Part shown: one piece after another, positions 15,664 to 45,443 of the stretch | Numbering within the stretch: the stretch's first letter is position 1 | Layout of the letters: each line of letters begins with the position of its first letter | Source: Paragorgia papillata | Lineage: Eukaryota; Cnidaria; Anthozoa; Scleralcyonacea; Coralliidae | Direction of reading: 5' to 3' | DNA length: 64,000 nucleotides | NCBI GenBank assembly: GCA_035771165.1 | Contig: JAWNZC010000265.1 | Location: forward strand, 3,064,001-3,128,000 | Notes under the pieces: generated by a model | Databases searched by the model: none | What the model was told of the DNA's origin: nothing | Seen by the model: only the letters and a program-made list of their open reading frames with translations | Translations under genes and position numbers: made by a program

Positions 15664-16117
15664 ATGGATAGCTTGTCACGAAAGCTTGATAATAACAAAC
15701 GAATTCCCAGTTCGTCTGACCCAAATGTGAACATTGTTATGTATCTCTTGTTATTTGTGAACACGCGAGAAAATGTGGAGAATGAGAAATTTGCTAAAAG
15801 AGCTATAGAGTCGTTGGTAAAGAAACTACGGAAAAAGACTGAAGAATTAGACGCTCTTATAAGAGCTGTATCGTCTCGTGGCAAAGAACCTAGCAAATGT
15901 GTGACAATCCCACGAACGCTAGATGGAAGGCTTCAAGTTTGTGAACGAAAGGGTTTCCCTCATGTTATATACACAAGACTTTGGCGTTGGCCAGATATTC
16001 AGAAAATGGAATTACGGCACAATGATTCTTGTCTTTATGGATTTGACTTGAAATGTGAGACTGTGTGTGTAAATCCGTATCACTACGACAGAATTGGAAC
16101 CATTCATTCAGTAGCAA
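15664..16117 (+). CDS. Exon with start codon and first Smad4-like MH1 domain (MH1a)
   Basis: ATG 15664 has A at -3 and G at +4, and an in-frame TAA lies upstream at 15634, so this start is well placed. The 151 codons contain a complete MH1 domain in a single exon: [16 protein letters not shown], then the DNA-contacting hairpin [20 protein letters not shown] with the Smad4-type Arg, Gln and Lys contacts. The zinc ligands are Cys (SKCVTI), Cys (NDSC), Cys (ETVC) and His (NPYHY). It matches Smad4 MH1 better than R-Smad MH1. It ends at a strong donor (gtaagt) in phase 1. Confidence 0.95.
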
Positions 16118-19100: not shown

Positions 19101-22100
19101 GCTGTTTGTAATAACCATATGGCTAATAAAGTACAAACAGCTAATAGATATAAAATACAATTATGAATGACAATAATATAAGTAAGACAAGATGGTATTA
19201 CAGTAACCTAAAAGTTCTAACAATTAACAATTAACCATTAACATTATATTGACCAAGATAATTTATTACATGTATTAATAAATAACCATCAATAAATATT
19301 GACAAAAGAGACTTTTTCAGTTTTGATACTGAAAGATGTTTTAATTTTTCATCAAGAGAATTCCATAATTTCGGTCCTTGAAATTTAATATTAAAGAGAC
19401 CATAATTTGTTCATTACCAAAGGAAGGGAATAAGTGGACTTAGAGGAGTGTTAAGTATTATAGCCATGGATTTGTCAAAAACAGGTGGTAGCTATAGTAT
19501 TGTTGTGAAATTTATGCATGAAAACAGCTAAGCAAAGGCTGTTTAAATCTGGTAGTTTTATTATTTTAGCTTCTTTGAGTAAAGGGCTTGAATGTTCATC
19601 ATATTTAGAGAAAGTTATAATTCTCAAAGCTTTCTTTTGCAAAATTTGAAGAGGAGTCAAAATTGTAGGTGATGTAGATCCCCAAGTAATTAAGTTAAAA
19701 ATGGATAAATAAGAGCATAATAAAGATTAGTTAGTGTCTTTAGATAATGTAGTAGCGAATTTTAGATAAAAGTCCAATGCTTCTTCTTAATTTACGACAA
19801 ATATAACTAACATGGGTTTTCCAATTTAAATTTGAATCTATAAATATGCCAAATGAATATATAGATTCCTTCTGTTTAATCTCCTGATTATCTATTTTTA
19901 ATACAACTGATTGTATCAAATGTTTTTGCCGAGAATGGAATAGAACAAAATTAGATTTATCGATATTTAATGAAAGTTTATTTTTACACAACCATATGAA
20001 GATTTTACCCAATTCCCCATTTAGAAATGTTTCCAAGCTGGTTAATAAATCTGTATGAGCATAAAATAAATTAGAATCATCAGCAAAAAGGTGTAGATCA
20101 AGTGATGTACATCTTTGAAAATCATTTATATAAATTAAGAATAGGAGAGGGCCATTATGACTGATCCTTAGGGAACCCATCTAAGTAGTAATTAAACTGA
20201 ATACTAGATGTTTCACTACCAATGGATACTAGCTGTCATCTTCTACCACTTAAATACGATTCAAACCATTCTTTTGCAATTCCTCGGATACCACAATTTT
20301 CTAACTTATTTAGAAGAATTTTATGATTTACCATGTCAAAAGCTTTACTAAAGTCCAGAAATATACCACAGGAAAATTTGCTTTGAATAGCATTTTGTAT
20401 TTTATCTACTATATGCTAAGAATGGCATGATCCGTAGAGTGGTTTGTTCTAAATCCAAATTGTTTCTCGTATATAGGATTTCATTTTTTTCTATGTAATA
20501 ATTGGTGTATATTAATATGAGTAAATAAGGATTGTCTCTAAGCAGGAATGGGTTTTAAAATTTATTAATTGCTTCAATGACTTTATGATCGCTTGACATG
20601 ACTAGAATATTGTACATCCGGGGCTACCCCAAAAATAAAATAGTAACATGCTAAGGTCAACAGGAATTTAGTTATTCTTAATTAGTGGACTTGTGATATT
20701 CAAAAAACTAATGAACATGCTACAGTGTGTATTCTTCTTTAAAACAAGAATAATTGAGGCTGAGCAGTTAATTTAAGTTGATGTTATATAATACATTTAG
20801 TAATTATTTGTACAATTAACATTTGAGGCAATAATTATGACACCAATTTATTTGTTATCTTGTCAATAACAAAATGAGCTTCAGTCTATAAAATGTTAGG
20901 GAAGGTTGCTCAACTTGTGGAACTAAAGAAAGGACAGCCAATAATTATGGTTAATTCAATTAGATTAATACTGCATTTTTAGAATTTTTCTGGCTATATT
21001 TAGCTGAGCCAGACATATCAGTCTGGGCCTGGATTAAGAGATTTAATGTCATGGCAATAGAAGTGTTCCTAAAATATTACCAGTGGAACCCCACCATATG
21101 ATCACCCCATTAATATGACCACCTCGTTATTACGACCACTTTTTTCCAGCCTGAATGCATGTATTCTTCCCCCGATGGTGGTCGATTTAATGAGGTTCCA
21201 CTGTATTACAATTCAGTTTCTCTGTGTCTTGCCAATTCTTTGAAAAACGTCATGTTTTAAGTTTGATTGGTGTTTTACAAATAATCCTATTTCCGATTAG
21301 TTGTATGATCCAATTATATAACCAGAAACCAGAAACTAATCAAATCCAAAACAGGAAGTTTCTAACAAATTCCATCAAATTAATTGATCAGGATGAGTCA
21401 AGGTCAATTTGCAAATAATTATTTTACAAACACATGCATTGCTTAAGTCACAACCAATTTATTATAAACCTGTAGCCCTTAAAACGTTGCTAATTAATGC
21501 TCTATTACAATAGATCTTTGACATAATATAGTCAGAGAGATATTAATTTTATACTTTGAGTTCACTAGAAATTCAAAAGATTGTCTCTCAGACTCTCATT
21601 ATCTGAAGTGTAGAAAATGATGTATGTAGTGTGCTGTGGTATTTACAAAGGTGTAGCTCATTATTATCCATCATTCATGAGACAGCTAGATATTAAGTTT
21701 AATATTTAGGATTTGATATGATTTTTGAGCTTTTATTAAAAGTTCATTGTTTTATTTAGCAGATTATTGACCTACAACATTGCATGATTGTTTGTTAATA
21801 TTTTATAGATGATGCTTCTGTTTCATCTTTTCCTGGTCACTGTGGAGGATTGGTTCATGGATTAGCATATCCAGATGAACCACCAGTTAGCATGTTATAT
21901 GAACAACTAGGTTATAGTAAAAACACTCTTTCTGCATCTCTACCTTCAACTATTCCAACAGCAGATGACCCTTGTCCACTCATTGTTCAAACTTTGCTTT
22001 GTTATGTTTATTACAAATCTCGTAGTCCTGAAATGGAAACATTTGCAAGGAAAGCAACAGAATCTATTGTAAAAAAGTTAAAGAAGAATCCAAATGAGCT

Positions 22101-25100
22101 GGAGTCTTTGATAATTGCTATTACATCCCAGGGAAAGCAAATGTCTAGATGTGTTACACTGCAAAGGACAATGGATGGGCGATTACAAGTTGGGGAGAAA
22201 AAGGATTTTCCACATGTGATTTACACACGACTCTGGAGGTTTCCTGATGTTCATAAGATGGAGTTAAAACACATGGAATATTGTCGTTATGGATATGACC
22301 TGAAAAGCAACAAAGTCTGTGTCAATCCATATCATTATGAACGAGTACAGCCACCAGGTTGGTCATATTTTTATAATTTAAAAAAAAACTAATTAATAAA
22401 ATTATACAGTTTTATGTATAGTTTCTTAAAATAATATTCATGAAAACGTCCTAAATTAACTAACTGTTATTTAATCAGTATATTTTGATTACTAGACTAG
22501 TTCTTAAACTTATGGCTAAAATAAACAAGAATTATTTGACCCATGGATGTCAACTAGCATAATTAAGTATATTATATATAGGCAGACATCATGCAGCAGG
22601 TTAATTTGCTTGTTATTGTCTAGTAAAGCTACAGGTGAGTTAAATCCTTTGTCTGAATTAAAATATGGAATGTCTACTCAGCACTCATTAATTTCCTGTG
22701 TTTTGTCTTAGTTTGGAGTGTTAGGTATGCCAGAAATGTTACCAGTACATAAATTGATCACTAGAAACAACAAGCGTACATGAGACACATAAAACAGTTG
22801 CAGTTTTTGTCATTTGAATGCTTTTTTCATGCATACTACAGATATCTATATATATTTTGAATTAAAAGAAAAAAACGTTACACCATAGCAATTTAAAAAT
22901 ACCAAAAAAAATTTTGTTTGCGTAATTAGCTGCCTTATTAAGGCAAATGCTGAAAGGTTTTGAAAAGTTTATTTCGTTTAAAGCAAAATTCATTAGATAT
23001 TTAGCGATGAATATTGCAAGCGGCTCTGTTTTCCCGCGAAATTTAAATGTTCCAAGGCTTGTTTTAAATTTCAGCTAAACTGCCGTATTCAAAGACTTTT
23101 GTTGAACACGGGTTTTCGGGCCGATTTTTTTTCAAATTTTCACAATGTATATCGGAGACAATAAGAGCTTCAAAAGTGTGTGCGGTAGCTATACGATTTT
23201 TTTTTCATTTCTGAGTAATCGACTACGATTCATGGTATGCACGCAACTTAACTGAGGTTGCAAAAGAATGCCTTATATCTCAAAAATAAAAAAATAAAAA
23301 CATAGCTACCGCACACACTTTTGTAGAACAGCTAGTTGAAAAAAAGCGTTGTTGCACGCGTATTACCACCCACCTTAGAGGAGCAGTGTCACGGCTATGC
23401 GCATGCGCGTAATTTGCGAATGTTTGATTTTTGATTAGGCCAACAATAAATCAAAAAGGAGCGAGAAACATCGAAAACCCTGAAATCCAGTTCCATCGGC
23501 GCGTTTCTTCGTTTATTTTTTACCTTATTTCTTTACATACCTGTAATATATTATTATTTCAAGTGGTTTACGGTTTTATTTTGTATAATTTTGATCCTGG
23601 TCGGGAAAATCTGGTCTTTCCGATCAGACATCGGCGCGAGGAGTGAAACGCTATGATTAATAATAGTAGAATACTTCTGAGTTCTGTTTCTTGGCAATTT
23701 TGTGAAAATATTACATGTCCTGAAGACCACTGGAAGCTACCCTGGTTCCAGAGGTATTCTCCAGTAATTTTATTGGAAGCACGAACACCAATTATATATT
23801 TTATTTAACGACTATACTCTTTCAGTTATCACTTCGTATATATCCTTTCACCTAACGTTTCTCAACTGGTCAGTCTTGACTGTCTTTGGTTTAATTGGTG
23901 TCTGCTTGCGAGAGTTTGTAGACGAATACTATACACATACTATTCCTGTAGCAATGGTTATGATATTAACAAAGTAACAAATCCGTCAGACGGAGAAACT
24001 CCCAAATCAGACGGTAAATTATTCATGCAATTGAAAACAAACAAATATTAAATTTCATCATATTTTTATTAAAATTTGTTAAAGAACGTCTTGAACATAT
24101 ACATAAAAGTTTAGAAGCATAACTAGTGTAGAAATCAGGTTTAATATAATACGAAGCATAAAGATATTATTACAATTATAATAGATAAACAAGAAAGCAC
24201 GAACCATATAACTCATAAGTACTGAATAAAAGCGCTGAAGGCGGCGTATAAATCGCCAAACAAACCCTTCGTCCAGAACGTCAGTGGCTCATTTCTTTAG
24301 TAAAGCGCCAAGCATCTTTGGCTTTCATACCTGATTTTATAACACACGTCCAGGAAGCTCTTTATATACTTTTACATTTAGTAAATAGACGAACGACCTT
24401 CTTCTCGGCGCTTGTCGCACGGCAACTCGAGATTCTCTCAGCTCTCGGCTTTCTCCCGCTTTCGCTCGTGATTCTCTCAGCTTTCCTCAGCAGTCTTGAA
24501 GGGGCATCTTTTTTGGCTCATCCTTTCTGGAGCAGAAGTTTATAGACATGGAGCGGTAGATATCTGACAAATGTATACAATAGTAAGATTAGAAACTTGT
24601 CATTCACGAGGCATATACTGTAGCCGCGTATCACTATCTCATTTAGTTTATAAGATCAGAAAAACTAAAAAAACTAAAAATCTAAAAATCAGGCGCACTC
24701 ACCTGTTCTTATGACAGAGAAAAGTAGACATCCCAATGAAATACTAGACTATTTGCCTCGATTATTTAACGCTTGTTATAGTTTTGTCTTGCCTTCGAGA
24801 TACTCTTGTTCACTGCTTCGCTTCTCATCGTGGCGCCTAGATCAAATGTCAACATCAGACGGCTAAACAATACAAATCGCGATAGCCAATCAGCATCGTG
24901 ACACTGCCCCTTTAAACATTGTCACGCAGCAATTATTTCGTTGCAAATTGAATCAGCATGTTGCAGCAAGTAGAACTGGAGTCTACTTTTTTCAACAAAT
25001 TTTTTCAACTTGCAACAAAATCATTGTTGCGTGACAATGTTTAAGGTGGGTGGTAATACGTGCAACAACGCTTTTCAACTTGCAACGCAACAAAGTTGCG

Positions 25101-30461: not shown

Positions 30462-32452
30462 CTCAGTTCTAATACGATATCTTGTTTGTTTACACTGCAT
30501 GAACGTGTATTTCTTTCATTATTTGTGCAGACTAGCAGAGAGCATAGCAGGCATAGTCCTTGCCATGGAAAGAAGGAAGTGGCTTTGCTGCACACAACTT
30601 CTGTATCAAAGAAAAGGTTTGTGCGAAATACTAGCTGTAGGAGCTAGACAACTTTTTACCCAGGGTCTTTAACCTCGCGAGTTAGGGGAGTGGCAGAAGT
30701 AAAGATTCTGAGTGCGAGGTTGGGGACTAGAAAGCGATGATATTTATCAATTTAGATCTGGAGCGAGGGGTACTCCACAAAAAATTACCCCGAGGGATGA
30801 AATAACCCGAGGGCGAGCCCGAGGGATATCCCATCCCGAGAGGTAATTTTTTGCCTTTGTCCTTGTCACCGCTGGTGTTGCTGTCCTTGCATGCTCGTGT
30901 TCCAAACTCTTGTTTTTCTTCTCGTTGCCATTCTTCTTTTTCTGGTTGTTTCTTTCTTAAATATTGGGGTTTTTATTTGCTCTGTTCGTTCTTGTTCCTC
31001 ATTTCGTTTGCATAATTGTCATTTTTATTCTCGTTCTGTTCACGGCAGTTGTCTCCAGCGTGTTTCATGTGTGTTATTTGGGCCCACTATATAATTAAAG
31101 AACCCTCATCAAACTTTATAATTAAACCTTGCTTTCATTTTACTGACTTTATTTTAGGATTTTAATATTTCTGCTATCTCTTTGATTTTAGTTCATACTG
31201 TTGTCTGTGCAATAATGATGGCAGAAGTGTTTTCGGGCAGGGAAAAATCATCAAATTTGCACATTATTATGAAGATCAGTCAGCGTCTGAGAGAAACTTG
31301 CGATGGGACGATGTTAAAAGGAACGCGTCATTTTTAAATGATAGAATGGTAGAAAATAACAGATTGGAATACCCTAGGCTTAAACGGTCAGCCAGCCAAG
31401 ACAATTTACACAGTAACAGGTTTGTTATTTATTAAAAAATGTAAGTTCTGTTCAATATAGATAATTATGTTCATATTTGAGCAAAATTTTGAACATTTTA
31501 AAACATATTTTTTAAGACACATTCTCCCACTTTTACAAAAGATTTTGTCTAAAACTACATTATTACATATTTACAAAGACAACTACAATTGCAAAATCAT
31601 TTGCAACTCACTTGTCACTTTTCACCAAAATGTTCAGAAGTTCGTTACGAAGTTCGTTGGGAAGTTCAAAGTTTGTTTTGAACTACGCAATTGATTGCCG
31701 GCTACTAGGAACCACGAAGGCAATCAAATGCGTAGTTTAAAACGAGGTTTGAGCTTCCCAACGAACTTGCAAACTTCGGAACGAACTTCCGAACATTTTG
31801 GTGAAAAGTGAGTAGCAAATGACTGTCAAATAATAATTATTCTAACGGGATAAAGCGCGAACGCAACGCGAAAACTCATTGTCAAAGTTATGATATTAAA
31901 CGACTAGTTAGTTCTTTATTCTGTGACTCTGGGGGCAAATGTGACGTGTGACATAGAAATCCTATTTTGGATTTTCTCTGGGGGGCAGTTGCCCCTGCTC
32001 CCCCCCCCCCGCTATCTACGTGTACGACTTTTAAAAAGAGTTTTTCAGATGTCAGTATCAGGAGCATGTGTCTAGACTTAGTGCTACAAGCCTGTTGCGA
32101 ATACATCCTGTTAACAAGCTGTGGGACTAGTTTACGCGTGTACGACTTTTAAAAAGAGTTTTCCAGATGTCAGTATCATGGAGCATGTGTCTAGACTTAG
32201 TGCTACAAGCCTGTTGCGAATACAACCTGTTAACATGCTGTGAGACTAGTTTACGCGTGTACGACTTTTAAAAAGAGCTTTTCAGATGTCAGTATCATAG
32301 AGCATGTGTCTAGCTTAAAAAGTCTGTTTTGGGAGATTCAACTTATACTTAAAGCTAAATTTTGTGATCTACTTCAGGAACAATGTGGAAACTCACTTCA
32401 AACGACGAAGAAGCAACAGTGGTGGCGCTGTTAGTGAAGAACCAATATCACT

Positions 32453-32519
<67 letters not shown>

Positions 32520-35500
32520 TCTTCGCCTCAGTTTGGTTATGACTACAAAAAAGATCTTTCAGAAGTTAGCGATGACCGCGGAGACTTGTGGGTTCACGAG
32601 AAATGCGCAACATGGACAGCGGCAACTTCAAACAGTAAAGAAAATCCTTCCGTCACTAACCTGGTTATGAAGGCGCTTGCTACGGTAAATAAACTGGATC
32701 TAGTTGGATCAGCACGCTTGTACTGGTCATTGTGCTATTTTGCCTAATTGAAACAATGAGCAGCCATTGCTCTCATTGGCAAAATGGCAAAATGGCCAGT
32801 CCAAGCGTGAGGATTAGCAGTAAGATTATATAAGTTGAAGTAGAAGGGAAAATTGGACTGTTGTTAGATCGGTTGTCACCATTTTGGATTAGTATTGGGG
32901 GCAGGAGAGACAGTTACAAAACACTTCTCGTCAATATAGCTTTTGCATGCATGGGAGGAAAAGAACGGTTTAACACGTGCTTGGACTGGCCATTGTTGCA
33001 TTTTGCCTTGGGATAATGGGAAATCATATATGGCAAAATAACCAGTTCAAACACTTAATATTAAATATTTAGTTAAATTTTGCAGCGTCGAAGAACATCA
33101 ATGAAATGTGCAATGTTGTGCAAGTTCTATCTCAAATATGCAATATATGTTGCAAATATCTAATAACCACTTTAAATCGTAGGCCCTTGGAACCTTTATT
33201 AATGGACCGTACCGAAAAAGATGACGTCTTGTACATTTAACCACAATTCTTTGCGCACATTAAATATTCTTTCTTGCAGAATAATTGGAAGATAGGGTTT
33301 TGAAAGGGTAAACTTTTGTAGGAATGAAGTTCGTGCTTACTTAATCCATTTTAGCATGATAAACAATTTGAGCTGATTTGAGATCGCAAAGCATTGTGGT
33401 TAAATGTGCCGCCGCCATCTTTTTCGGTACCGTCAATTGAGCTCTTATCTTGTTAAGGTGTTCCGTTTATTAAAGAGTGATAAACTAAATTAAACTAAAC
33501 TAAACTAAACTAAACTAAACTAAACTAAACTAAACTAAACTAAACTAAACTAAGCTAAACTAAACTAAACTAAATTAAACTAAATTAAGCTAAACTAAAC
33601 TAAACTAAACTAAATTAAACTAAATTAAACTAAACTAAACTAAACTAAACTAAACTAAACTAAACTAAACTAAACTAAATTAAGCTAAACTAAACTAAGC
33701 TAAACTAAACTAAACTAAATTAAACTAAACTAAACTAAACTAAACTAAACTAAACTAAACTAAATTAAACTAAACTAAACTAAACTAAGCTAAACTAAAC
33801 TAAACTAAACTAAATTAAACTAAACTAAACTAAACTAAACTAAGCTAAACTAAATTAAACTAAATTAAACCAAATTAAACCAAACTAAACTAAACTAAAC
33901 TAAACTAAACTAAACTAAACTAAACTAAACTAAGCTAAACTAAACTAAACTAAATTAAACTAAATTAAACTAAACTAAACTAAACTAAACTAAACTAAAC
34001 TAAGCTAAACTAAACTAAACTAAACTAAACTAAGCTAAACTAAATTAAACCAAATTAAACCAAACTAAACTAAACTAAACTAAATTAAACTAAACTAAAC
34101 TAAACTAAGCTAAACTAAACTAAACTAAACTAAATTAAACTAAACTAAACTAAACTAAACTAAACTAAGCTAAACTAAATTAAACTAAATTAAACCAAAT
34201 TAAACCAAACTAAACTAAACTAAACTAAACTAAACTAAACTAAACTAAGCTAAGCTAAGCTAAACTAAACTAAACTAAATTAAACTAAACTAAACTAAGC
34301 TAAACTAAACTAAACTAAATTAAACTAAATTAAGCTAAACTAAACTAAACTAAACTAAACTAAACTAAACTAAACTAAACTAAACTAAACTAAGCTAAAC
34401 TAAACTAAACTAAATTAAACTAAATTAAGCTAAACTAAACTAAACTAAACTAAACTAAACTAAACTAAACTAAACTAAACGAAACTAAGCTAAACTAAAC
34501 TAAACTAAACTAAACTAAACTAAACTAAACTAAACTAAATTAAGCTAAACTAAACTAAACTAAACTAAACTAAACTAAATTAAACTAAACTAAACTAAAC
34601 TAAACTAAACTAAACTAAACTAAACTAAACTAAATTAAGCTAAACTAAACTAAACTAAGCTAAACTAAACTAAACTAAACTAAACTAAATTAAGCTAAAC
34701 TAAACTAAACTAAACTAAACTAAACTAAACTAAATTAAGCTAAACTAAACTAAACTAAACTAAACTAAACTAAACTAAACTAAATTAAGCTAAACTAAAC
34801 TAAACTAAACTAAACTAAATTAAGCTAAACTAAACTAAACTAAACTAAACTAAACTAAACTAAATTAAGCTAAACTAAACTAAACTAAACTAAACTAAAC
34901 TAAACTAAACTAAATTAAGCTAAACTAAACTAAACTAAACTAAACTAAACTAAACTAAACTAAACTAAACTAAACTAAACTAAACTAAACAAGTATATAT
35001 AGACAAAGTTGTATAAATTTGTCTGCTACATTTTTGAGTGTGTAAAAAAGTGTACATCACATTTTTATACAGTAATTGTTTTTATCTTTATCTCTTTAGT
35101 CTTGTACGTGGTGCAAACGTTATGGAGCCAGTATTTGTTGCGCTATTTCTCACTGTAAGAACGTTTTTCATTTGCCATGCGCAGTTGCAGCAGGTGTTTA
35201 CCAGGTAACGTAGAATGTACAACTTTGTAAGGAAACTTGGGTGGGCTTTATAAATGGCATAAGTGGGGGTTTATAAAAAACGTTTTAGGAAAAGGTGATA
35301 AGAAATAAGTTGAGACTAACATACAACAAAAATATATTTACCCGATTAACTTGTTTATTTTTATTTACAGATAGATGGGCCTATATATACTTGGGGGGGG
35401 GGGGGGGAGGGTTAACCGTGATGTCTGCTAGAATAATCTTGCCAGTTAGAATCAGCGAGTTAGAAACTAGAAAAAAGAAATGACTGTCTAATGAGCAGTC

Positions 35501-38500
35501 TTAAGACACTGAATCGTACTGGTGTGATCAACTAAGATCATTTAAATCTCTATTGGTCGATGGATACCTCCAGTACCCATAGCCTGCGGTCCTTTTGTCC
35601 AGCGACAAGAAGCCATCGGCTCTGACCGGAACCGGAATGTCGGGTCAGAGAAACGTGGATTTCAGAAAGAACGTTCATGATGATTTAAGCCAATCACCGT
35701 ACTGCTTTACTTTGTTCAGGTCACAGCTGATGGCGCCTTGTCGCTGGATATAAGGACCGCAGGCTCTGGGGGACGAAATGCGTGACCATGTTTTTCTCCT
35801 CCGCATGCGCAGAGGTTCTTTTGGAGACTTTTGGAGAGATTTGTCGGAGTGTACTCTCGAAAAAAGATATTCCCGCATTCATTTGTTCTATCAAAGTTAA
35901 AAGGTCGTAAATTACCACGAAATACTGACGTTCCAAGCGGAGCCCTTCATCAGACTAAAATCCACATTTGACTCTGATGTAGGACTCCGCTTGAAACATA
36001 CAGTGTAAGTATTTTGTTACTAAATATCTTGACAGTTTACGACTTTTAACTTTGTTTTATTAAAAACACTGCCTACGCAGCACTCTACTTTTTTCCATTT
36101 GTTTCTACATGCGCTCCGACAAATGTTTCCGAGGATTTCCGAAAGAACATCAGCAGAAAAGAAAGTGCCCATGCAATGTTCATGATTCTGCTAGTTGCTA
36201 ATATATACAGACCTTTCACATCGCGTCTTGGCGGCCATTCTTCCGTAAGCCACGATGTAAAAAAGTCCGTATTACTAGCAGACTATGACCCAGCAAGTTA
36301 CTCCTAATTAACTGAAATTAATTCTTAATTAACAAAAAATATTATTTTAATAGAACATACGTAGCCAGAAAGCGTATTGCTTGGAACACCCTCAAGTTCT
36401 GCAAAACATTGGTAGGTCTTTTTAACAATGAAAACTCGTAATATTTAAACTCATGAACGCGTTCGCTTTTAGCTCTTTTCCGTGGGTGGATTTTTCAGAA
36501 AGTAGACCCTTGATTCTACTTTGTGCAACGATTGCATGTTGCAACTTGTCTCCCAGCGATTTTGACCATTGCACAGCATGTTACACGGTGCAATGGTTCA
36601 TGCAACTTGTCTTGCAACGGCGGTGCGAGACAAATTGCATGAAAAATTGCACCGTGTAACAAGAGCTTTAGATAAACGTATCGTGGAGTAAGAAGGCGAA
36701 TATGTTAGCCACGAAAGAGATTCATTTGCGGCATTGCAGAACTCTTTGTTGAATTACTTGTTAATTTTAATTGTGAACTTAAGAAGATATGTTTACGGGT
36801 TTTTAATTTTTTATAAGAAGCACACATTTTACTAAGATTGGCTAGTCTTGTAGTTATTTGCCAGATTGGAACATTTTACCAAAGGACAAAAAAACTTCCT
36901 ACATTAGGACATTCCAAGAAAGCTGCTTTTTGAAGATTTAAATTATTTTATTGTAGCTTGTATTCATATATATATATTTTTAGATTTTTAAACTGTATTT
37001 TGTTGTTTAATTCTTATTAATTTTTATACTGTACTCTTTTATAAGTATTTTTTTAAACACAGGGCTCTACTGAAAAGCACTCATTATAATGTATATATAG
37101 ACGGTCTATAGACCGTCTGTATATAGAGTTGAATTATTATTATTATTAGTAGTAGTAGTAGTATTAGTATGTGAAGCCGCAGTCCATACTGTGAATGAAA
37201 TCATGTCATCAGAGGAAACAGAAGCAATATTATTGGTAGATGCCATGCACCAACGCTTTCAACACCATCAATCGACAAGCCGCACTACATAACATCAGAA
37301 TGATCCTGCAATATCAATTGTGCTGAATAATACCTATCAAACCCCAGTAAAGCTGTTTATCACAGGAGGAGGAGTAGTTGAATCATTCGAAGGAATTACC
37401 CAAGGGGACCCTCTGGCTATGGCGATGTATGCTGTTGCAGTAACACCACTGATTCAAAGGTTAAGATCTGAAGAGCCGAAAGTAAAACAAGTGTGGTTTG
37501 CCGATGACTCCACTGCCGGCGGGAAAATTGAAGCACTAAGAAGATGGCGGCAGTGTTTGTCAGCCATAGGTCCACCAATGGGATACCATCCAAATGCCAG
37601 CAAAACACATCTCATTGTCAAACCAGAATTCCAAGAAGATGCAAATCATATCTTTGAAGGAACGGGAATAGTGGTGACAACTGAAATGCTTGGTTCTGCT
37701 GTTGGATCAACTAGCTTTGCTAAAGAATTCGCAGCACACAAAGTTGAGGAGTTTGTTGAAGAAATTGAGAATCTTTCCAAAATAGCTGAACTTTACCCCC
37801 AATCTGCATATGCGGCATTTTCTCATTGTATTGTGGGAAAATGGCGATACATGATGCGAACAATGAAGGATATTGACACTCTATTTCAACCGTTAGAAGA
37901 CGCGATCAGTCAAACCTTTATTCCTGCATTAACTGGTAGATGTCAGTGCCCTATGAAGAAAGAACTCTTCTCTCTCTACCCATCTCAAACTTATTAATAA
38001 TTCATGAAGAAAACACAAAGGAAATCAGTACCGTGTCTGTGGTTTGGATATCGGAGGAAGAAATTACATAAATTAAGCAAACTTTCATCTTGATTTTCTC
38101 TTAAAATACTGATTTGTTTGAGATGCTATATCACACACTCGGAGGAGTGTTTCATCAGGATATCCAAATACCTCGAAGTTTGTTCAAAAACCTCGGCTTC
38201 GCCTCGGTTTTCAACAAACGTCTCGGTGTTTGGATATCCTGATGAAACACTCCTCCTCGTGTATGATATATTACCTAAGACCCGGTGGCCTAAACATCAT
38301 CAACCCCGTAACCGATGCAAATGGAGAATATCATGCCTCAGAAAAGATAAGTGAACCACTGAAAGAGATGATGGTCGAGCAAAAAGAATCATTCAATAGA
38401 CCACAACTACAGTCTATTAAATCGAACTTGCGTCGGAAGAAGCAGCAAGAAATTGAGATCGTGGCACTCCAAGTAAGAGAACGTCTACCTCCATCAAAGC

Positions 38501-39494: not shown

Positions 39495-39560
39495 GTTGTT
39501 GTTGTTGTTGTTGTTTCACGGTAAAGATGTAGATACCCGTGTTTAATCCTCACTGACAGG

Positions 39561-39626
<66 letters not shown>

Positions 39627-42600
39627 AAATGCACTTGCATTTTACTCAAGAGTCAAGTAGTAAGATTGTTAATCATATTTTGTCTCGCTTGTTTTTTTAC
39701 AGCTTTTTGTGGCACGTGTAACTGCCCTGGGGAAGTAGGAAATATTCTGTTCTGTATAAACTGTGGTTATCAAGCACATGGTCAGTGCATCAGTCCAGCT
39801 ACTAAAGTTACTCCATCAATGCGCTTGGGTTGGGAATGTAAGCGTTGTAAAAGATGTCAGGTTTGCAGGTAAACAGTCAAATAGCAACGATGTTAAGATG
39901 TTTCTTTGTCTTATATATTAACTTATATATAGGGAAAATAGGCAAAATCCGATTATGAAAAGTAATACGATAAATCCGATTATGAAAAGTAATACGATAA
40001 AATACAACCAACGAACGAACGAACGAACGAACGAACGAACGAACGAACGAACGAACGAACGAACGAACGAACGAACGAACGAACGAACGAACGAACGAAC
40101 GAACGAACGAACGAACGAACGAACGAACGAACGAACGAACGAACGAACGATCGAACGAACGAACGAACGAACGAACGAACGAACGAACGAACGAACGAAC
40201 GAACGAACGAACGATCGATTGATCGATCTCACGGGCTGGCAAAATAATTATATAAAACGCTGGTAACTCGTGACTCGTACAAGTGCAGTGGAGTGGAGTG
40301 GAATGGAGTGGAGTGGAATGGAATGGAGTGGAGTGGAGTGGAATGGAGTGTAGCGGTGTTATGTTGTGTGGTGTACTTAAAGCTGTATAATATCTCGTGG
40401 TGTTTGTTCCGTTTAAATTAAGGTCTTTAGATGAGTGGCTACAAACCATTTAGTTGGTTGTATATTTTATGCATGGGTTGTTTGAAGACTTCCTATTTAA
40501 CAATTAATCGCCCGTAGACGATTGTCAATTATGTTTCAAATTCTATTTTTCTCTTCAGACACTCGATTGATGTGGAAAGATCATTAACATGCTTCAGTTG
40601 TGACAGGGCTTACCATATTTCCTGCATCGAAGAAGGAAATAATCCACGTGATGATCAAATCTCTTCAGCGTGGATGTGTAAGGTAAACAATATAAACTGT
40701 CGAACAAATCTTATTTTTTTCAACAATAGACCATTTGCACGATGACGTACGATAGCAATTGGGTGAAAATCAGGTAACCAATTGAAGGCTGCCATCTTGG
40801 ATCAATTGGGGGGGTAAAATGGCAAACCCGGATGTAAAACTACTCGGTTCCATGCATACCTTTCCTACTATCCGAGAGTTCTTGGATAGTAGGAAAAGTC
40901 TGGGACCGAGTAGTTTTATATCCGAGTTTGCAATTTTGCCTCCCAATTGATCCAAGATGGCAGCCTTCAAATGGTGACACGATTTTGACCCCAAATGCCC
41001 CCTCTAGTTTTATTTATGATCTCTATGACCAGTATCCTATAATAGAAGATACTGGCAAAGCATTCTGGTAATCGTAGCCGCCCAATGCTATTGTACATCG
41101 TCACGTAAATGGTCTATTTAAGTGAAAATTACGTAAGATTACTCTTGCTTTTAGTTTCTCACAAGCGACAATATACTGCAAACTATCGATAATAACCACG
41201 TCAAAATAGGCCATTCTAAAAATATCATTTTTTAATTGTTAATACAATTTTCACGAGCAACCAGCTGGAAATCACAAGCCAACATGCGTGGTTGAACCAC
41301 TGGGTAAAACATGTGTTTGCAGCAGCTTTGAAGCCATGGGCATGTGATCAGTTATTTAAATGTTCTGAAAACATTATGATCTGCAACCAGACTAAAGGAC
41401 AACACGTCCCCTCTCCTTACGCACCTCTGCAGACACCAGGCTTACAGCACGTTTGTCACAGTCTTGCGTGCGAACAACATGTTGAATGGAAATTTATTTA
41501 AACTGGAATAAGCCATACAAATGCGTTTGATATCGGAATATGCTTTTTATAAAAATATTCCAACTTTCGACGTTTTTATTAGAACCTTTGACATTATTTC
41601 TACTATACTTGACAGTTAAGTTGTTGCATTGTTTATTGTGTTAATTTTTTAATATGTAATTTCTAAATTTCGTAGAAATGTCAAAGATGCCAAAGTTGTG
41701 GAAAACATATCCCCAGAGGAAATATTCCATTGAAATTAAACGAAGCAAGTATGTTATGTGGTGAATGTCAAACGTTAAGCAGTAGAGGGTATTGTCCTTT
41801 GTGCAATAAAGGATTTTGTCCACCATCAGCTGCCACTCTTGCTGTTCAGTGTGACACGTGTAAAAAGTAAGTTGAAGTTAGTCATGAGAATTAATAATGA
41901 CTTGTTGATTATCAGTTTGTTTAGCCACCGAGGTGAGAACCAAATATCCCCACAGATATACCCTGCGAGTAGAGCTTTCTTGAAAAGTAGGCTCTGCTGT
42001 ATTCGTGACTGGTTTCCATTGCGCATGCATGTCAGTTGCTTGGTTACAATCTCGAACCCAGTCCCAATCAGAGCAGAAAACAAAACGAGAACCGGTTAAA
42101 CGGGTCTTAAACGGGTTACTTCGTCCTTTGGACGAAGCCAAACAGAAATACAGCAGAGCCTACTTTCTTCCTCTCTCTCAGCGAAGAAATAAGGAAAAGA
42201 AGGCTCTGCTCGCAGGGTACCACAGATATAAATGATGTCAAGAAAACAGATGGATATACTGTAGCTCTCGTGTCTGAGCTAGCATATTCATCTCTTCTCT
42301 TAACAACATGTATTGCGACGTTAACATATATCATCATACTTGCGCATAGCAGTAATAATATAATGTCATACATCAAACTCAACCCACCGAAATAAATCAT
42401 CTGAGGCCCAGCAAAGGCGCACGGGCTTTGCCGCCCACAGTTGTCGGAGAAAATAAATCAGCGACCTCAGACTCAGGCAACTGCTTATTTCATTCTAGCC
42501 CTCTATTATTAATAGGTTATAGTTATAAACCAATCATATATATAGCCATAGAAACACATATATAGATTTATAGTATGCCATATTGTGCAAGTAGTGTTGT

Positions 42601-45443
42601 ATGAACTATTGTGCATGCTGATTAGATTGTATTTCATATGATATTAAAAGTCGGGCACTTTTTGTTTTAGTTGGGCAAATTTTTTGCCACCCCCCTACAA
42701 ATTTGTGCCCGTACGCCTATGAGTCTCAGAAGGTTTGGGGTTCGAGTCCCACTTAGGAACTCAAAAAAACATTTCAGTAAAATGGCTCGAAGAACATTTA
42801 CACTGAGTTGAGATGATGTTAGCACCACTCGTTAATTTATTCTCATTGTTGTTGTTTTTCTTGTTAGATGGTTGCACGTGTGTTGTGCTGAAGTAGATCA
42901 AGATACGTACAACAGAGTTCAAGATGATGATGAACTGATTTTTGTTTGTGAATCATGTAATCAGGAAGAAATTTCTTCTAACACAAGTCAGGTAAGATTA
43001 TCAGGCTAGTGTTCCCAAGGTTGCGGGTTTATCCCTGTATATCGGGCTGTATTTTTTCCTGAGTATACTTACAGCTTGACTAGCTGTGGCGAACTGGCAC
43101 GTCCTCCACGTGGGCGTTGCTATTTTGTTTTATAAAATAGGTTGCGTCTTACGCACGCTGTGATTGGTCAATTACTGTGTTTATATCAGGCTATGTAAAC
43201 ACGGTTGTGATGTCACGGCATATTTTTTAGCCTTATTTCATAAAAGAAATAGAAAATGGATGCCCTGTGTTTATATAACCTCATGATGCAAAACACTCGA
43301 GTGAGTTGGGAGAATTCGAAAGTACTTATGTAAACCCTCGCCTACGGCTCGGGTTCACATAAACTTTCGAATTCTTCCAACTCACTCTCGTGTTTGCATC
43401 AGGTTATATAAACACGGGCGGCCATTTTCTATTTCTTAATTAATAATTTTATTTACTAAACTTTAAATATCTAAATATATAAATTTATTATATGCATGAC
43501 AAAATTACTGCATTCTGATTGGTTGAGAGGAGTACAATTATTTTATTAATGTACTGCAGTACAATTAATGATTATGTCATGTATATAATAAACAACGGCT
43601 CGTGCAATTTTGGCACAATTTTCAAATATCACTCGTAGTGTAAATCCTTAATTGTACTCGCTATCATGATTACCTATACTAATTAACATAAATATAGCTA
43701 ATAAATTTACTGTTAGCAAATTCACTTTTTCAACGTTTTAAGCAATAATGATATAATGATAATGATTTAATATTTCTATTGCGCAAATTAACATGTGGAT
43801 ATGATCAAATGCGCATTACAATGTTATGGGTGGCTTATCAGGCAATTTATAAATTTTCACCGTGGCCGTGTTGAGGCATATCAAAGGCGCTTTATGCTGC
43901 CGCCAACAACACAGTTCAGACCACGGATCTCAACTAAGACCTAGGTGTTGATTTTACGGAGGGAGGAAAACCGGAGAACCCGGCGAAAAACCCTCGAAGC
44001 ACAGGAGAGATCAACTAAACTCTACTCACATGGTCCAAGCTCGAGAACGAGGTTATTCCCAGACGGTCACCCATCCAAGTACTAACCCCGTCCGACCGGG
44101 CTTAACTATTGGTGAGAGGCAGCGCGCTAACAGCACACGCCACCTGTGCTCCCAATAAAGGATATTTCAGCTTCCACCTGCAGCTACTGTTATTTGATAA
44201 GATTCTAATGACTATTGGACACTTTTAATAGTAAATTCTGGTGTAAAGTAAATTCTCACTTTTAATAGTAAATTCTGGTGAGGATCTTGGTAGAGTTTAA
44301 CTCACCCAGACCCAAACGACTGGTTTCAGATTGACGATTCTGGTCTAAAAGAACACGTACGTATCAAGAGCACTTCTGGCTGGTCAATCAAGACCTTCAC
44401 ATGCCTTGTACTACACGCGTAAAAACGCACAACTTGTTCACGGTTGTCAACAGGCGTGAACAACGTTGTGCTGCTCGCCGTGAACAATGTTGTGCTGCTC
44501 GCCGTGAACAAGTTGTCAACAAGTTGTTCACTTATGGTTCGAACAACTTGTTCACGGATAAATCAACAGTCATGAACAAGTTGTTCCAACAGCACATTTT
44601 TATAGCCAACAACGTTGTTCGCACATGATACAACATGTTGTAACAGCATGACGAAATAACAACGATGAACAACAATGTTACAACAATGGTGAACATGGTT
44701 GATGTATCAACACGTTCTTCGGTTGTTACAACATGTGTGAACAACGGTTGTTGTTTCATCAAGCTGTAACAACTTGTTGAAACAATGATGAACAATGTTG
44801 TTCATTTATCAATGTTGTTCACATATGTCAACAAGTTGTTACAGCATTGTTCAGGCAACAATGCTGTAACAACTTGCGAGATTTTTACGCGTGGTCCCGA
44901 TTAATGAAAATGTTCTTCTAATGAATGAGTGATCCTAGAGGAATGTGATTTGCAGTTTTTTGTGAGGATCCATTATTTTTGTTTGTAGGCTCACGAAGAT
45001 GAAGAGAAAACAGAACAAGACTCAGACACAGAAGAAAAATCAGGAGATTCTGATGAGAATTGTGAGACAGATGTTTCAAGACAAGAGTTGCGTGATTGCA
45101 ATGTTGTTGTTCAAGAACAGGTAACAAATTGTACAACTAGTTGGTCAACTAGTGAACCTTTACAATGGTCAAGACTTCGTTTAGCTTATTCTTTTGAATA
45201 TTATTACACTAAACAACTTGGTGCAATGTTAAAAATGCATTCACGAGCCTCCGAGCCTTCTTCACGAAGTAATTCACCAGTTGCTTCGACAAGTACTGCT
45301 TCGACAACTTCTGCTGAAACAACTTCTGCTTCGACAACTTCTGCTTCAACAACTTCTGCTTCAACAACTTCTGCTTCGAAACAACTTCTGCTTCGACAAC
45401 TTCTGCTGAAACAACTTCTGCTGAAACAACTTCTGCTTCTCAG
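15664..45443 (+). CDS. Predicted fusion: two Smad4-type MH1 domains + KMT2C/D N-terminal ePHD/PHD fingers (Lpt-like)
   Basis: Fourteen exons: 15664-16117, 21809-22357, 28761-28968, 30005-30110, 30531-30616, 31192-31419, 32378-32684, 35100-35204, 36354-36411, 39703-39868, 40559-40682, 41676-41866, 42868-42991, 44989-45443. All splice phases match in sequence, giving about 1053 residues before the last exon. MH1a is at about residues 13-140, MH1b 204-331, ePHD 470-695, then PHD fingers at about 703-756, 757-810 and 838-898, and an acidic then Ser/Thr-rich tail. Families: MH1 binds DNA in Smads; the N-terminal PHD cluster of KMT2C/D (Drosophila Lpt) reads chromatin. No MH2 domain occurs between the MH1 exons and the PHD exons. 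The MH1-to-PHD join (22357 to 28761) is inferred from phase, strand and lack of other exons. The alternative is two genes, a second one starting at ATG 28769. Confidence 0.65.
19016..20650 (-). mobile_element. Degenerate non-LTR retrotransposon (LINE) fragment
   Basis: On the - strand, 20420-20240 reads [20 protein letters not shown]...[17 protein letters not shown], and 20180-19740 reads [14 protein letters not shown] and [12 protein letters not shown] (RT palm, catalytic ADD), then [15 protein letters not shown] and [14 protein letters not shown]. 19660-19475 reads [14 protein letters not shown], the usual LINE C-terminal end. Stops and frame changes break it, so it is dead. The 3' end is a TTC-repeat tail (19016-19034 on +), as in CR1/Jockey-type elements. 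Confidence 0.85.
21079..21206. repeat. Short inverted-repeat element, pogo/mariner-like ends
   Basis: CAGTGGAACCCCACC at the left and GAGGTTCCACTG at the right; TA-containing flanks. 128 bp, no frame. Confidence 0.5.
21809..22357 (+). CDS. Second Smad4-like MH1 domain exon (MH1b), phase 1-1 cassette
   Basis: Acceptor TTTTATAG|AT, donor G|GTTGGT; 549 bases, 183 codons, phase 1 at both ends, so inclusion or skipping keeps the frame. About 50 residues of linker ([20 protein letters not shown]) precede a complete MH1: [16 protein letters not shown], hairpin [20 protein letters not shown], zinc ligands RCVTL, EYC, KVC and NPYHYERV. By eye the two MH1 copies are about 55-60% identical, both with intact DNA contacts and zinc site. 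The Smad4-type PPG junction lies at the donor; human SMAD4 also has a phase-1 intron within two codons of this point. Confidence 0.94.
22358..22400 (+). promoter_or_regulatory. Possible intronic polyadenylation site after MH1b
   Basis: If the exon-2 donor is not used, the frame runs 11 more codons to TAA at 22390-22392, and a canonical AATAAA follows at 22395-22400. This could yield a 345-residue protein made only of the two MH1 domains. The donor here (gttggt) is weaker than the other donors of the gene. The signal is seen in sequence; its use is inference. Confidence 0.35.
23105..25140. repeat. Foldbacks in the MH1-PHD interval
   Basis: 23105-23330: AAAAGTGTGTGCGGTAGCTA and TAGCTACCGCACACACTTTT. 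24905-25140: AACATTGTCACGCAGC and GCGTGACAATGTT with GTTGCAACTTG words; that second family recurs near 29700-29965 and 36525-36665. Confidence 0.6.
25580..25800. repeat. Foldback element, second copy of the 7690-7915 family
   Basis: Same arms (ATACTGCCGAAACAGAGAAC, AACGTTTCGAGCGAAGG) and same flank word (GCGTAGGCAGTGTAGAAACA). Confidence 0.75.
25915..26055 (+). mobile_element. SINE tail fragment (same family as 56640-56820)
   Basis: Shares GTTGCATTTTTCGCAACTGG, CCCGGTTTG and ATGTATATATTCTACACTCG with the 56640 copy; the tRNA-like head is not evident. Confidence 0.55.
26198..26236. repeat. Poly-G run
   Basis: About 35 consecutive G after GGGGT; exact length is uncertain in any assembly. Confidence 0.9.
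28060..28610. repeat. Two adjacent foldbacks just before the linker exon
   Basis: 28060-28425: AAGGTCTATGTCACTATACC and GGTATATGTCACGTTATAGACC. 28427-28610: ACCTTATTCAAAAATGGCCG and CGGCCACTTTTGGAATAAGG, with ATTATTTTATGTGCATATAA inverted inside. If 28769 is a separate start, these would lie in its promoter. Confidence 0.7.
28761..30616 (+). CDS. Linker exons between MH1b and the ePHD
   Basis: Three exons: 28761-28968 (phase 1 in, phase 2 out), 30005-30110 (out phase 0) and 30531-30616 (out phase 2). After MH1b the joined reading is [16 protein letters not shown]. The first exon is Pro/Tyr-rich ([13 protein letters not shown]), the second Ser/Asp-rich ([17 protein letters not shown]), the third basic. 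ATG 28769 is a possible start if this is an independent gene, but its context is weak (T at -3). About 130 residues separate this ATG from the ePHD, a length also seen in stand-alone KMT2D. Confidence 0.8.
29010..29275 (+). mobile_element. Second copy of the TTA-flanked MITE
   Basis: Same sequence as 37994-38270, starting TATATCATACACGAGGAGG and ending TTCATGAATTATTAA, flanked by TAA. The copy carries a local duplication (GTTAAAAGAAAATCAAGGTG, twice near 29120-29185). Its tail (GTACTGATTTCCTTTGTG) also occurs at about 60390-60435. Confidence 0.65.
29690..31830. repeat. Foldbacks and TCAA microsatellite among the linker exons
   Basis: 29690-29965 (GCAATTTTCTTTGCAACTTG type), 30125-30373 (CTCCACACGTATCCGTTT and GGATACGTGTGGACG), TCAA repeat 30402-30459, and 31600-31830 (TTTTCACCAAAATGTTC and GAACATTTTGGTGAAAA). 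Confidence 0.65.
31192..36411 (+). CDS. Extended PHD (ePHD) exons of the KMT2C/D N-terminal half
   Basis: Exons 31192-31419, 32378-32684, 35100-35204 and 36354-36411. The pre-PHD knuckle starts [20 protein letters not shown] and continues, after a long insert, at [10 protein letters not shown]. The following PHD is [13 protein letters not shown]..., [18 protein letters not shown] and YCLEHPQVL. This is the order and spacing of KMT2C/D ePHD1. The insert between the two knuckle halves is about 150 residues and includes 21 consecutive Asp from a pure GAT run (32454-32516), which should be length-variable. A 1.5-kb TAAAC satellite lies in the intron between the knuckle and the PHD. Confidence 0.93.
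32018..32310 (+). repeat. 118-bp tandem repeat, about 2.5 copies
   Basis: Units start CGTGTACGACTTTTAAAAAG at about 32020, 32137 and 32257, with GATGTCAGTATCA and AGCATGTGTCTAG inside. ACGCGTGTA links it to the transposon family at 44403-44893. Confidence 0.8.
32454..32516 (+). repeat. GAT run coding for 21 Asp within the ePHD insert
   Basis: Pure trinucleotide run inside exon 32378-32684; in frame, coding. Confidence 0.95.
32710..33440. repeat. Foldback elements
   Basis: 32710-32815 and 32960-33055 share arms (ACGCTTGTACTGGTCATTGT / CAAAATGGCCAGTCCAAGCG), a family also seen at 47370-47505. 33195-33440 has ACCGTACCGAAAAAGATG and CATCTTTTTCGGTACCGT. Confidence 0.65.
33481..34990. repeat. TAAAC pentanucleotide satellite, 1.5 kb, intronic
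   Basis: About 300 units of TAAAC with recurrent TAAAT, TAAGC and CAAAT/CAAAC variants. Variant blocks recur, e.g. CAAATTAAACCAAACTAAAC at about 33871, 34051 and 34196, and TAAATTAAGC many times from 34430 to 34920. This indicates higher-order structure. Confidence 0.97.
35590..36665. repeat. Foldbacks between two ePHD exons
   Basis: 35590-35775 (GCCTGCGGTCCTTTTGTCCA and GATATAAGGACCGCAGGC), 35880-36065 (AAAAGGTCGTAAATTACCAC and complement) and 36525-36665 (GCAACTTGTCTCCCAGCG, TTACACGGTGCAATG and complement). A poly-G run sits at 35393-35407. Confidence 0.6.
37170..39330 (+). mobile_element. Degenerate reverse-transcriptase element with restriction-like endonuclease-type C-terminus
   Basis: 37320-37990 is [32 protein letters not shown]. 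It resumes at 38274 ([18 protein letters not shown]) after a MITE insertion. Downstream is [16 protein letters not shown] and a zinc-knuckle ([15 protein letters not shown]), then [11 protein letters not shown] and FFDVRVFHP, then [17 protein letters not shown]. The CxC-x7-H-x3-C followed by Asp-rich motifs resembles the restriction-like endonuclease end of R2/NeSL-type non-LTR elements; this assignment is inference. A stop at 38902 and a frameshift near 38960 mark it as inactive. It lies in the intron 36412-39702. Confidence 0.75.
37994..38270 (-). mobile_element. MITE inserted in the RT gene, TTA target duplication
   Basis: TTA at 37991-37993 and 38271-38273 flank the insert; removing it rejoins the RT frame across ACT-TA|C-CTA (Gln-Thr-Tyr-Leu-Arg). 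The insert has an inner foldback (TCATCAGGATATCCAAA and its complement around CCTCGGCTTCGCCTCGG). A related copy is at about 29010-29275 in the other orientation, flanked by TAA. A 3-bp TWA duplication suggests the PIF/Harbinger group. Confidence 0.7.
39463..39626. repeat. TTA/GTT microsatellites
   Basis: Two ATT runs (39463-39494 and 39561-39626) around a GTT run. Confidence 0.9.
39703..42991 (+). CDS. Three PHD fingers of the KMT2C/D N-terminal half
   Basis: Exons 39703-39868, 40559-40682, 41676-41866 and 42868-42991. Finger 1: FCGTCNC...[14 protein letters not shown]...[12 protein letters not shown]. Finger 2: [14 protein letters not shown]...[13 protein letters not shown]. Finger 3: [12 protein letters not shown]...[14 protein letters not shown]...FVCESC. 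The WxCxxCxxCxxC linkers between fingers are a KMT2C/D hallmark. Finger 3 has FC where the family usually has a Tyr-His pair before the second half, a possible loss of one zinc ligand. All junctions are in phase. Confidence 0.93.
40009..40352. repeat. GAAC microsatellite and GGAGT/GGAAT repeat
   Basis: About 51 GAAC units at 40009-40215 with one GATC interruption; then GGAGT/GGAAT pentamers at 40288-40352. Confidence 0.93.
40725..42235. repeat. Foldbacks among PHD-finger exons
   Basis: 40725-41110: AATAGACCATTTGCACGATG and CGTCACGTAAATGGTCTATT, with an inner foldback around CTGCCATCTTGGATCAATTG. 41935-42235: CCACAGATATACCCTGCGAG and CTCGCAGGGTACCACAGATA. Exon 41676-41866 lies between them. 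Confidence 0.7.
42710..42780 (+). mobile_element. tRNA-like B-box fragment, probable SINE
   Basis: GGGGTTCGAGTCCCAC at about 42736 is a good B box, but no full tRNA can be folded from the surrounding bases. Confidence 0.35.
43245..43440. repeat. Foldback element
   Basis: CCGTGTTTATATAACCTGAT type arms around CCTCGCCTACGGCTCGGG; the outer words GGCATATTT and GGCGGCCATTTTCT also pair loosely. Confidence 0.65.
43745..44152 (-). mobile_element. 5S rRNA-derived SINE, complete copy
   Basis: Read on the - strand from 44152: head GGGAGCACAGGTGGCG, then GTTAGTACTTGGATGGGTGA and CCGTCTGGGAATAACC as in 5S rRNA, body with GTTCTCCGGTTTTCCTCCC, and an AT-rich end with ATCATT repeats. SINEs with 5S heads (SINE3 type) are known in animals. 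It lies in the intron 42992-44988 of the PHD gene. Confidence 0.75.
44403..44893. mobile_element. Inverted-repeat element with ACGCGTAAAAA ends
   Basis: CTACACGCGTAAAAACGC at the left and GCGAGATTTTTACGCGTGG at the right. The inside is an irregular array of GTTGTTACAACATG/AACAACTTGTTC words. A second copy is at 50808-51140. Confidence 0.65.
44989..45443 (+). CDS. Acidic and Ser/Thr-repeat exon, last secure exon of the fusion gene
   Basis: Starts [20 protein letters not shown], then [19 protein letters not shown], then a repeat of five-codon units ([13 protein letters not shown] acaacttctgcttc). At about 45379 one unit has an extra base, so the second half of the array is read in another frame ([10 protein letters not shown]...). 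The exon ends at a perfect donor (CAG|gtgagt), phase 2 as read, or phase 0 if the extra base is an error. Without splicing, TGA follows at once (45445). Confidence 0.85.

What the first reader, a model, noticed from the sequence alone, without database searches (positions are those of the whole stretch)
15664..45443. Two Smad4-type MH1 domains apparently fused to the PHD-finger half of a KMT2C/D protein
The MH1a, MH1b, linker, ePHD and three PHD exons lie on one strand with no other gene between them. All 13 splice junctions match in phase (1,1,2,0,2,2,0,0,1,2,0,2,0). No MH2 domain follows the MH1 exons, so these are not a normal Smad4 gene. MH1 gives Smad-type DNA binding, and the PHD cluster is the chromatin-reading part of MLL3/4. 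I know of no described protein with this architecture; it would place sequence-specific targeting inside the MLL3/4 complex.
Basis: partly seen in the sequence, partly recalled or inferred. Interest (0 to 1): 0.93.

Follow-up and report, generated by a model that had tools for sequence, protein, structure and literature searches.

The report
Smad4–MLL3/4 chimeric gene of cnidarians
This gene joins two Smad4-type DNA-binding domains to the first PHD-finger group of an MLL3/4 histone methyltransferase, and the same chimera exists in a coral, sea anemones and Hydra, where databases list it without a known function.

Summary
Observation confirmed. Pfam finds two MH1, three PHD and one ePHD stretch. 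The fusion is real: one search found 13 database proteins with MH1 plus PHD and/or ePHD; the four named are Nematostella, Porites, Actinostola and Hydra. Five others lie on contigs of at most 2.9-4.4 kb, so probably transcripts. Twelve of 13 share a C-terminal motif that also lies in the window's last exon. The MH1s group with Smad4; the PHDs derive from KMT2C/D, whose apparently complete gene ends 7 kb upstream and shares splice phases. An ordinary Smad4 exists elsewhere. Action inside the MLL3/4 complex is not supported: no SET, and the ASXL-docking acids of PHD2/3 are mostly lost. Most likely it occupies Smad sites independently of the signal, tethered to chromatin (inferred). Nematostella's 'truncated smad4-like' is probably this gene (untested).

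The parts
15664..16117 (+). Exon 1: start codon and MH1a (Smad4-type MH1), ends phase 1
21809..22357 (+). Exon 2: MH1b (Smad4-type MH1); ends phase 1 at PPG|, the place of the likely exon-1 donor (SPG|) of the own Smad4
28761..28968 (+). Exon 3: linker, phase 1 in, phase 2 out
30005..30110 (+). Exon 4: linker (serine/acidic)
30531..30616 (+). Exon 5: linker (basic); best-scoring of 47 candidates
31192..31419 (+). Exon 6: first Cys pair of the extended PHD ([14 protein letters not shown])
32378..32684 (+). Exon 7: poly-Asp and ePHD middle (LWVHEKC)
35100..35204 (+). Exon 8: ePHD ([17 protein letters not shown])
36354..36411 (+). Exon 9 (58 nt): ePHD end (AYCLEH); top of 139 candidates, tied with one other
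   Evidence: aligns with LYCLNH of homologues
39703..39868 (+). Exon 10: PHD2
40559..40682 (+). Exon 11: PHD3
41676..41866 (+). Exon 12: PHD4, first part
42868..42991 (+). Exon 13: PHD4, end
44989..45447 (+). Exon 14 with stop TGA 45445-45447: acidic stretch, conserved C-terminal motif ([17 protein letters not shown], within 45139-45234), repeat tail found in no homologue aligned
1536..8704 (+). Neighbour, not part of the fused gene: C-terminal half (FYRN, FYRC, SET, stop) of a KMT2C/D gene whose N-terminal PHDs begin about 36 kb upstream of the window

Best explanation
The locus encodes one protein of 1054 residues (MH1-MH1-linker-ePHD-PHD-PHD-PHD-C-terminal motif). It most simply arose before anthozoans and hydrozoans separated: a Smad4 first exon was copied and doubled and came to lie in front of a partial duplicate of the 5' part of KMT2C/D, whose apparently complete relative still lies just upstream here. 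Shown: the open 14-exon model, the same architecture in 13 database proteins (two of them incomplete at an MH1, one cut before the end), the grouping of both MH1s with Smad4, the KMT2C/D likeness of the PHDs, and shared splice phases. Inferred mechanism: the two MH1 domains, with hairpin and zinc ligands kept, hold Smad4-type DNA sites in tandem; the PHD block tethers the protein to nucleosomes or a chromatin factor. With no MH2 it cannot join receptor-activated Smads by the known route, and with no SET it cannot methylate, so it probably occupies Smad sites without needing the signal and competes with or tunes Smad4 there.
For: Thirteen homologues (P0003-P0015): Pfam lists MH1, ePHD and PHD for 11, MH1 and ePHD for P0013 (cut short), MH1 and PHD for P0014. 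C-terminal motif in 12 of 13. P0003-P0006 and P0012 lie on contigs of at most 2.9-4.4 kb with reading frames of 941-979 residues, whereas the window's gene has 26.6 kb of introns, so they are probably transcripts. MH1a+MH1b form one group (98/99), R-Smads another (100/100), MH1b 99/97, in a tree with 9 of the 13 homologues. Arg, Gln, Lys of the hairpin and the four zinc ligands are present in 13 of 14 MH1a rows and 13 of 14 MH1b rows; the other two (P0011, P0015) lack that stretch of sequence. KMT2C/D descent; six of six splice boundaries delimited in the ePHD-PHD4 stretch of the neighbouring KMT2C/D gene have a counterpart of equal phase in the fused gene, two of them shifted by 2 and 4 codons. 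Own Smad4 with MH2 on another contig.
Against: No RNA from this species was available. DNA binding, histone binding and competition with Smad4 are inferred from sequence only. MH1b has Asp where Smads have Gly after the hairpin Lys (KKDFPH or RKDFPH for RKGFPH), so its DNA contact may differ. The fused gene has two introns (after exons 6 and 12) that the neighbouring KMT2C/D gene lacks. Exons 5 and 9 were chosen among 47 and 139 candidates. MH1a as one group is weakly supported (78/66). AlphaFold confidence was below 50 for most of residues 1-327, the MH1 part; the fold search ranks Smad4 MH1 first but with rmsd near 12 A.
Confidence: 0.75

Rival explanations
1. Two neighbouring genes: a Smad4-like MH1-only gene (15.6-22.4 kb) and a PHD gene (from about 28.7 kb), joined only on paper.
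For: Intron of 6.4 kb between exons 2 and 3; exon 3 has an in-frame ATG near its start.
Against: Homologues from both an anthozoan (Nematostella, Porites) and a hydrozoan (Hydra) carry both halves in one protein, and five more do so on contigs of at most 2.9-4.4 kb. Exons 2 and 3 match in phase.
Confidence: 0.03
2. The protein is an MLL3/4-complex subunit in the manner of Drosophila Lpt/Cmi: it brings N-terminal PHD functions, now aimed by MH1, to the KMT2C/D complex.
For: PHD quartet of KMT2C/D type; in Drosophila the PHD clusters sit on a separate protein that interacts with Trr (passage in PMC9813062).
Against: The neighbouring KMT2C/D gene keeps its own PHD clusters, unlike Trr. Of the ASXL-docking acids, the D285 place is acidic in 2 of 12 family members aligned and the E292 place in 0 of 12, against 3 of 3 KMT2C/D sequences; six members (Porites and five unnamed) have Lys at D285, the change that brought MLL4 binding to about 1.7 mM (PMC11161652 passage). 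Loss of ASXL docking does not exclude other contacts with the complex.
Confidence: 0.2
3. Transcriptional co-activator at Smad sites: the PHD block or the conserved C-terminal motif recruits an unknown activator, so the protein helps rather than hinders Smad4 targets.
For: C-terminal motif kept in 12 of 13 homologues, without a credible PDB match; clustered PHDs of KMT2A-D localise to active promoters and enhancers (abstract of PMC9813062).
Against: No partner is known; Pfam shows nothing beyond MH1 and PHD-type fingers. In the same paper an artificial join of the two KMT2C PHD clusters showed no specific binding (passage).
Confidence: 0.25

Closest known systems
Smad4 (co-Smad)
   Same: Both MH1 domains group with Smad4 and keep hairpin and zinc ligands; exon 2 ends in the phase and place of the likely donor of own Smad4 exon 1.
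   Different: Two MH1 domains, no MH2 found, and a PHD block instead; a Smad4 with MH2 exists besides.
KMT2C/KMT2D (MLL3/4), N-terminal ePHD-PHD2-PHD3-PHD4
   Same: Order and type of fingers, best PDB hits, splice phases.
   Different: No second PHD cluster, FYRN/FYRC or SET found in the gene; ASXL-docking acids mostly lost.
Drosophila Lpt/Cmi (PHD part of KMT2C/D as a separate protein)
   Same: KMT2C/D-type PHDs apart from the SET protein (PMC9813062 passage).
   Different: Lpt has two PHD clusters (same passage) and, as recalled, no MH1; Trr lacks clustered PHDs, whereas the KMT2C/D gene here has them.
Nematostella 'truncated' smad4-like (NV2.15308; NvSmad4-like JQ959583)
   Same: A second Smad4-type gene in a cnidarian, called truncated (PMC11846459 passage; PMC3531958 passages). 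Probably the same gene as LOC5509135 (P0008).
   Different: In the passages read no PHD part is mentioned; identity of the two names with each other and with P0008 was not tested, as no sequence for them was available.

Membership tests
Smad family (co-Smad) | MH1 domain with DNA-contact hairpin and zinc ligands | tested here: met
Smad family (co-Smad) | MH2 domain | tested here: not met
   No MH2 in window, 20 kb upstream, 60 kb downstream; none in the Pfam lists of P0003-P0015
KMT2C/D | N-terminal ePHD plus three PHD fingers | tested here: met
KMT2C/D | SET, FYRN/FYRC, second PHD cluster and C-terminal ePHD in the same protein | tested here: not met
   None downstream of the PHD exons up to contig position 3,188,000; the frame stops in exon 14 and homologues end near the WSRLR motif
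KMT2C/D | ASXL-docking acids of PHD2/3 | tested here: not met
   residues from PMC11161652; the own KMT2C/D also departs at E272 (Gln)
MH1-MH1-PHD family of P0003-P0015 | Two MH1, ePHD, PHDs and the WSRLR..YSFEY motif in one protein | tested here: met
MLL3/4 complex subunit | Physical association with the complex | not testable with these tools
   needs pull-down

The most novel reading that the evidence does not exclude
Stem cnidarians made a chromatin-reading, signal-independent 'pseudo-Smad4' by exon shuffling: an MH1 tandem that holds BMP/TGF-beta target sites without phospho-Smads and, if NvSmad4-like (Wnt/Tcf-dependent in print) is this gene, lets Wnt set the chromatin state of Smad sites. 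It would be a conserved regulatory layer of axis formation, so far seen only in Cnidaria.
Probability: 0.35. Interest if true: 0.88.

Novelty: new variant of a known kind. Interest (0 to 1): 0.76.

Why it matters
MH1 domains are otherwise known from Smads and, in diverged form, NFI (recalled). A chimera of the co-Smad DNA reader with the chromatin-reading head of MLL3/4, kept from Hydra to corals, is an old exon-shuffled regulator in a phylum used to study how BMP signalling made the second body axis. Papers on Nematostella count 'smad4-like' among BMP effectors; if it is this gene, its expression and the Tcf-dependence need another reading. It also gives a natural test of what the KMT2C/D PHD quartet does when separated from SET.

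Tried and rejected
Rejected: Smad4 pseudogene (open frames, conserved ligands, conserved family). Rejected: canonical Smad4 with a distant MH2 (none within the stretch searched; a copy with MH2 is on another contig). Rejected: the PHD part as the N-terminal half of the neighbouring KMT2C/D gene, which has its own PHDs upstream. Considered and weakened: recruitment of PR-DUB through ASXL.

Led nowhere: the C-terminal motif in the PDB (one hit to a ribosomal protein, E 0.033). Searches with the PHD half alone returned 8 family members each, all with MH1, and missed the Hydra-type ones, so their reach is limited. Absence of the family outside Cnidaria therefore rests mainly, where only the 7981 candidates sharing most words were scored and 120 of 1257 hits are listed; it is not shown. 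Four of the 13 are named, all cnidarian; of the nine unnamed, eight fall among them in the tree and one (P0011) was left out of it. Taxon of the window: not named; one search puts it outside the coral/anemone group, on a long branch with a warning; an octocoral would fit, but this is a guess. A recalled HMG-box query found nothing in the KMT2C/D neighbour, so I call that gene apparently complete, not proven intact.

Not done: MH2, PHD or KMT2 searches of the whole own genome, so other PHD-quartet copies or further MH2 elsewhere are not excluded; neighbourhood of the gene in other cnidarians; reading of Matus et al. 2006 (not held).

Full report
What is there. The window lies in a 618-Mb genome (C265:3064001-3128000). 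Six MH1 matches exist there: on contigs 321, 464 and 181, a partial one on 469, and the two of this window (counts are lower bounds by the tool's note). By likeness they are Smad1/5, Smad4, Smad2/3, a Smad6/7-like one and the two MH1 domains of the finding. The Smad4 copy on contig 464 has its MH2 about 17-21 kb further on.

Gene model. Exons total 3165 bases, introns 26,619. Exons 5 and 9 were picked among 47 and 139 candidates as the top-scoring (exon 9 tied with one other), exon 9 supported by its likeness to the homologues. Pfam on the model without its repeat tail (984 residues): MH1 in two stretches (3.9e-69), PHD in three (1.1e-9), zf-HC5HC2H and zf-HC5HC2H_2.

Is the fusion real? A protein search with a 946-residue model found 13 proteins with MH1 and PHD-type domains ahead of all Smad4s (P0003-P0015; 120 of 1257 hits listed). 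Pfam lists MH1, ePHD and PHD for 11 of 13; P0013 (cut short) lacks PHD and P0014 lacks ePHD. Four are named: Porites lutea, Nematostella vectensis LOC5509135 isoform X2, Hydra vulgaris LOC100199160 isoform X1, Actinostola sp.; nine are unnamed. Identity to the window is 38-40% over 93-94% of the query for P0005-P0008. P0003-P0006 and P0012 lie on contigs of at most 2.9-4.4 kb, too short for a gene with introns such as this one, so I take them as transcripts (inference from contig length). In the alignment the family shares start region, both MH1s, ePHD, PHDs and a C-terminal motif WSRLR..YSFEY. The motif is in 12 of 13 (P0013 is cut before it); MH1a is cut in P0011 and MH1b is missing in P0015. 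P0014 lacks part of the ePHD and P0015 the region of its first Cys pair, which may be gene-model gaps. In the hydrozoan-like members PHD3-PHD4 are less well kept. In the DNA held around this locus the C-terminal motif is found with confidence only in exon 14.

Where the parts come from. In a maximum-likelihood tree of 32 MH1 domains (window plus 9 of the 13 homologues; P0004, P0005, P0006 and P0011 not used), MH1a and MH1b form one group (98/99) beside Smad4, apart from R-Smads (100/100); MH1b is one group (99/97), MH1a weakly (78/66); a sponge Smad4 falls weakly with the R-Smads (74/83). The simplest reading is one capture and a doubling before Anthozoa and Hydrozoa parted. The PHD block is KMT2C/D-like: a profile gives KMT2D 2.8e-31, then MLL3 and KMT2D PHD2/3, before KAT6 and DPF. 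The fold search lists Smad4 MH1, PHF7 and MLL3/KMT2D PHD2/3 among its best, with rmsd above 10 A, so it shows local likeness at most. A KMT2C/D gene lies just upstream: ePHD and PHDs at about -36 to -28 kb, second PHD cluster at -25.5 to -21 kb, C-terminal ePHD at -5 to 0 kb, FYRN/FYRC at 1.5-4.7 kb and SET at 5.9-8.7 kb of the window, stop 8702-8704. Its whole frame was not assembled; a recalled HMG-box query found nothing. Six of six splice boundaries delimited in its ePHD-PHD4 stretch have a counterpart of equal phase in the fused gene, two shifted by 2 and 4 codons; the fused gene has two further introns. Exon 2 ends at the codon and phase of the likely donor of own Smad4 exon 1. So the chimera looks made from DNA copies, not retrocopies.

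What it may do. By alignment column, hairpin Arg, Gln and Lys and the four zinc ligands are present in 13 of 14 MH1a rows and 13 of 14 MH1b rows, the two others lacking that stretch; a cruder pattern test gave 19 of 19 but missed two true Smads. MH1b has Asp after the Lys. No MH2 means no phospho-Smad partners by the known route (established knowledge of Smads). One defined function of KMT2C/D PHD2/3 is docking of ASXL proteins (PMC11161652: abstract and passages). I mapped its interface residues. KMT2D, KMT2C and the neighbouring own KMT2C/D have acids at 285 and 292 (3 of 3), though the own one departs at 272 (Gln). Of 12 family members aligned (P0012 and P0013 dropped out of the extraction), the 285 place is acidic in 2 and Lys in 6, the 292 place acidic in 0, K274 kept in 9; place 257 is beside a gap and unsure. 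D285K in MLL4 brought binding to about 1.7 mM in that paper. So the family probably does not recruit PR-DUB as KMT2C/D does. In the Nematostella model most of residues 551-850 (ePHD and PHDs) have block means of about 68-90, MH1s and linkers mostly under 50.

Literature. BMC Biol 2025 (PMC11846459; passages) names smad1/5, smad4 and a 'truncated' smad4-like as BMP effectors in Nematostella, citing Matus et al. 2006, which is not held. PLoS Genet 2012 (PMC3531958; passages) lists NvSmad4-like (JQ959583) as induced by a GSK3 inhibitor, expressed in the central domain of the animal hemisphere and lowered by dominant-negative Tcf. PLoS Biol 2026 (PMC13193452; passage) plots smad4-like among BMP effectors; an Acropora paper (PMC12360431; passage) lists a Smad4-like. 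None of the passages mentions PHD fingers. Searches for MH1 with PHD or two MH1 domains in cnidarians gave nothing relevant in the listings. That smad4-like is LOC5509135 is likely but untested.

Verdict. Observation confirmed and extended; fusion real and old; placement inside the MLL3/4 complex not supported. Confidence: architecture and descent about 0.97, competitor/tuner mechanism about 0.45.

Noticed in passing
1536-8704 and upstream to about -36 kb (L026, L027, L007, L008): Apparently complete KMT2C/D gene on the same strand, ending 7 kb before the fused gene; not mentioned in the finding.
   Followed up: yes
37293-38901: Reverse-transcriptase-like open frames in the intron between exons 9 and 10 (judged by eye), a retroelement relic.
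   Followed up: no
39922-40266 and 47555-48126: Tandem repeats that read as (NERT)n and (CGNTMLWKHHVVETP)n, one inside an intron, one downstream of the gene.
   Followed up: no
about 32440-32530 (exon 7) and 45260-45444 (exon 14): Poly-Asp run and a Ser/Thr-Ala then Leu-rich repeat tail in coding exons, not seen in the 13 homologues aligned; probably fast-changing in length.
   Followed up: partly
P0016 (Glossina brevipalpis, 1143 aa): Smad4 model with MH1 and linker present twice; may be an assembly or gene-model duplication.
   Followed up: no
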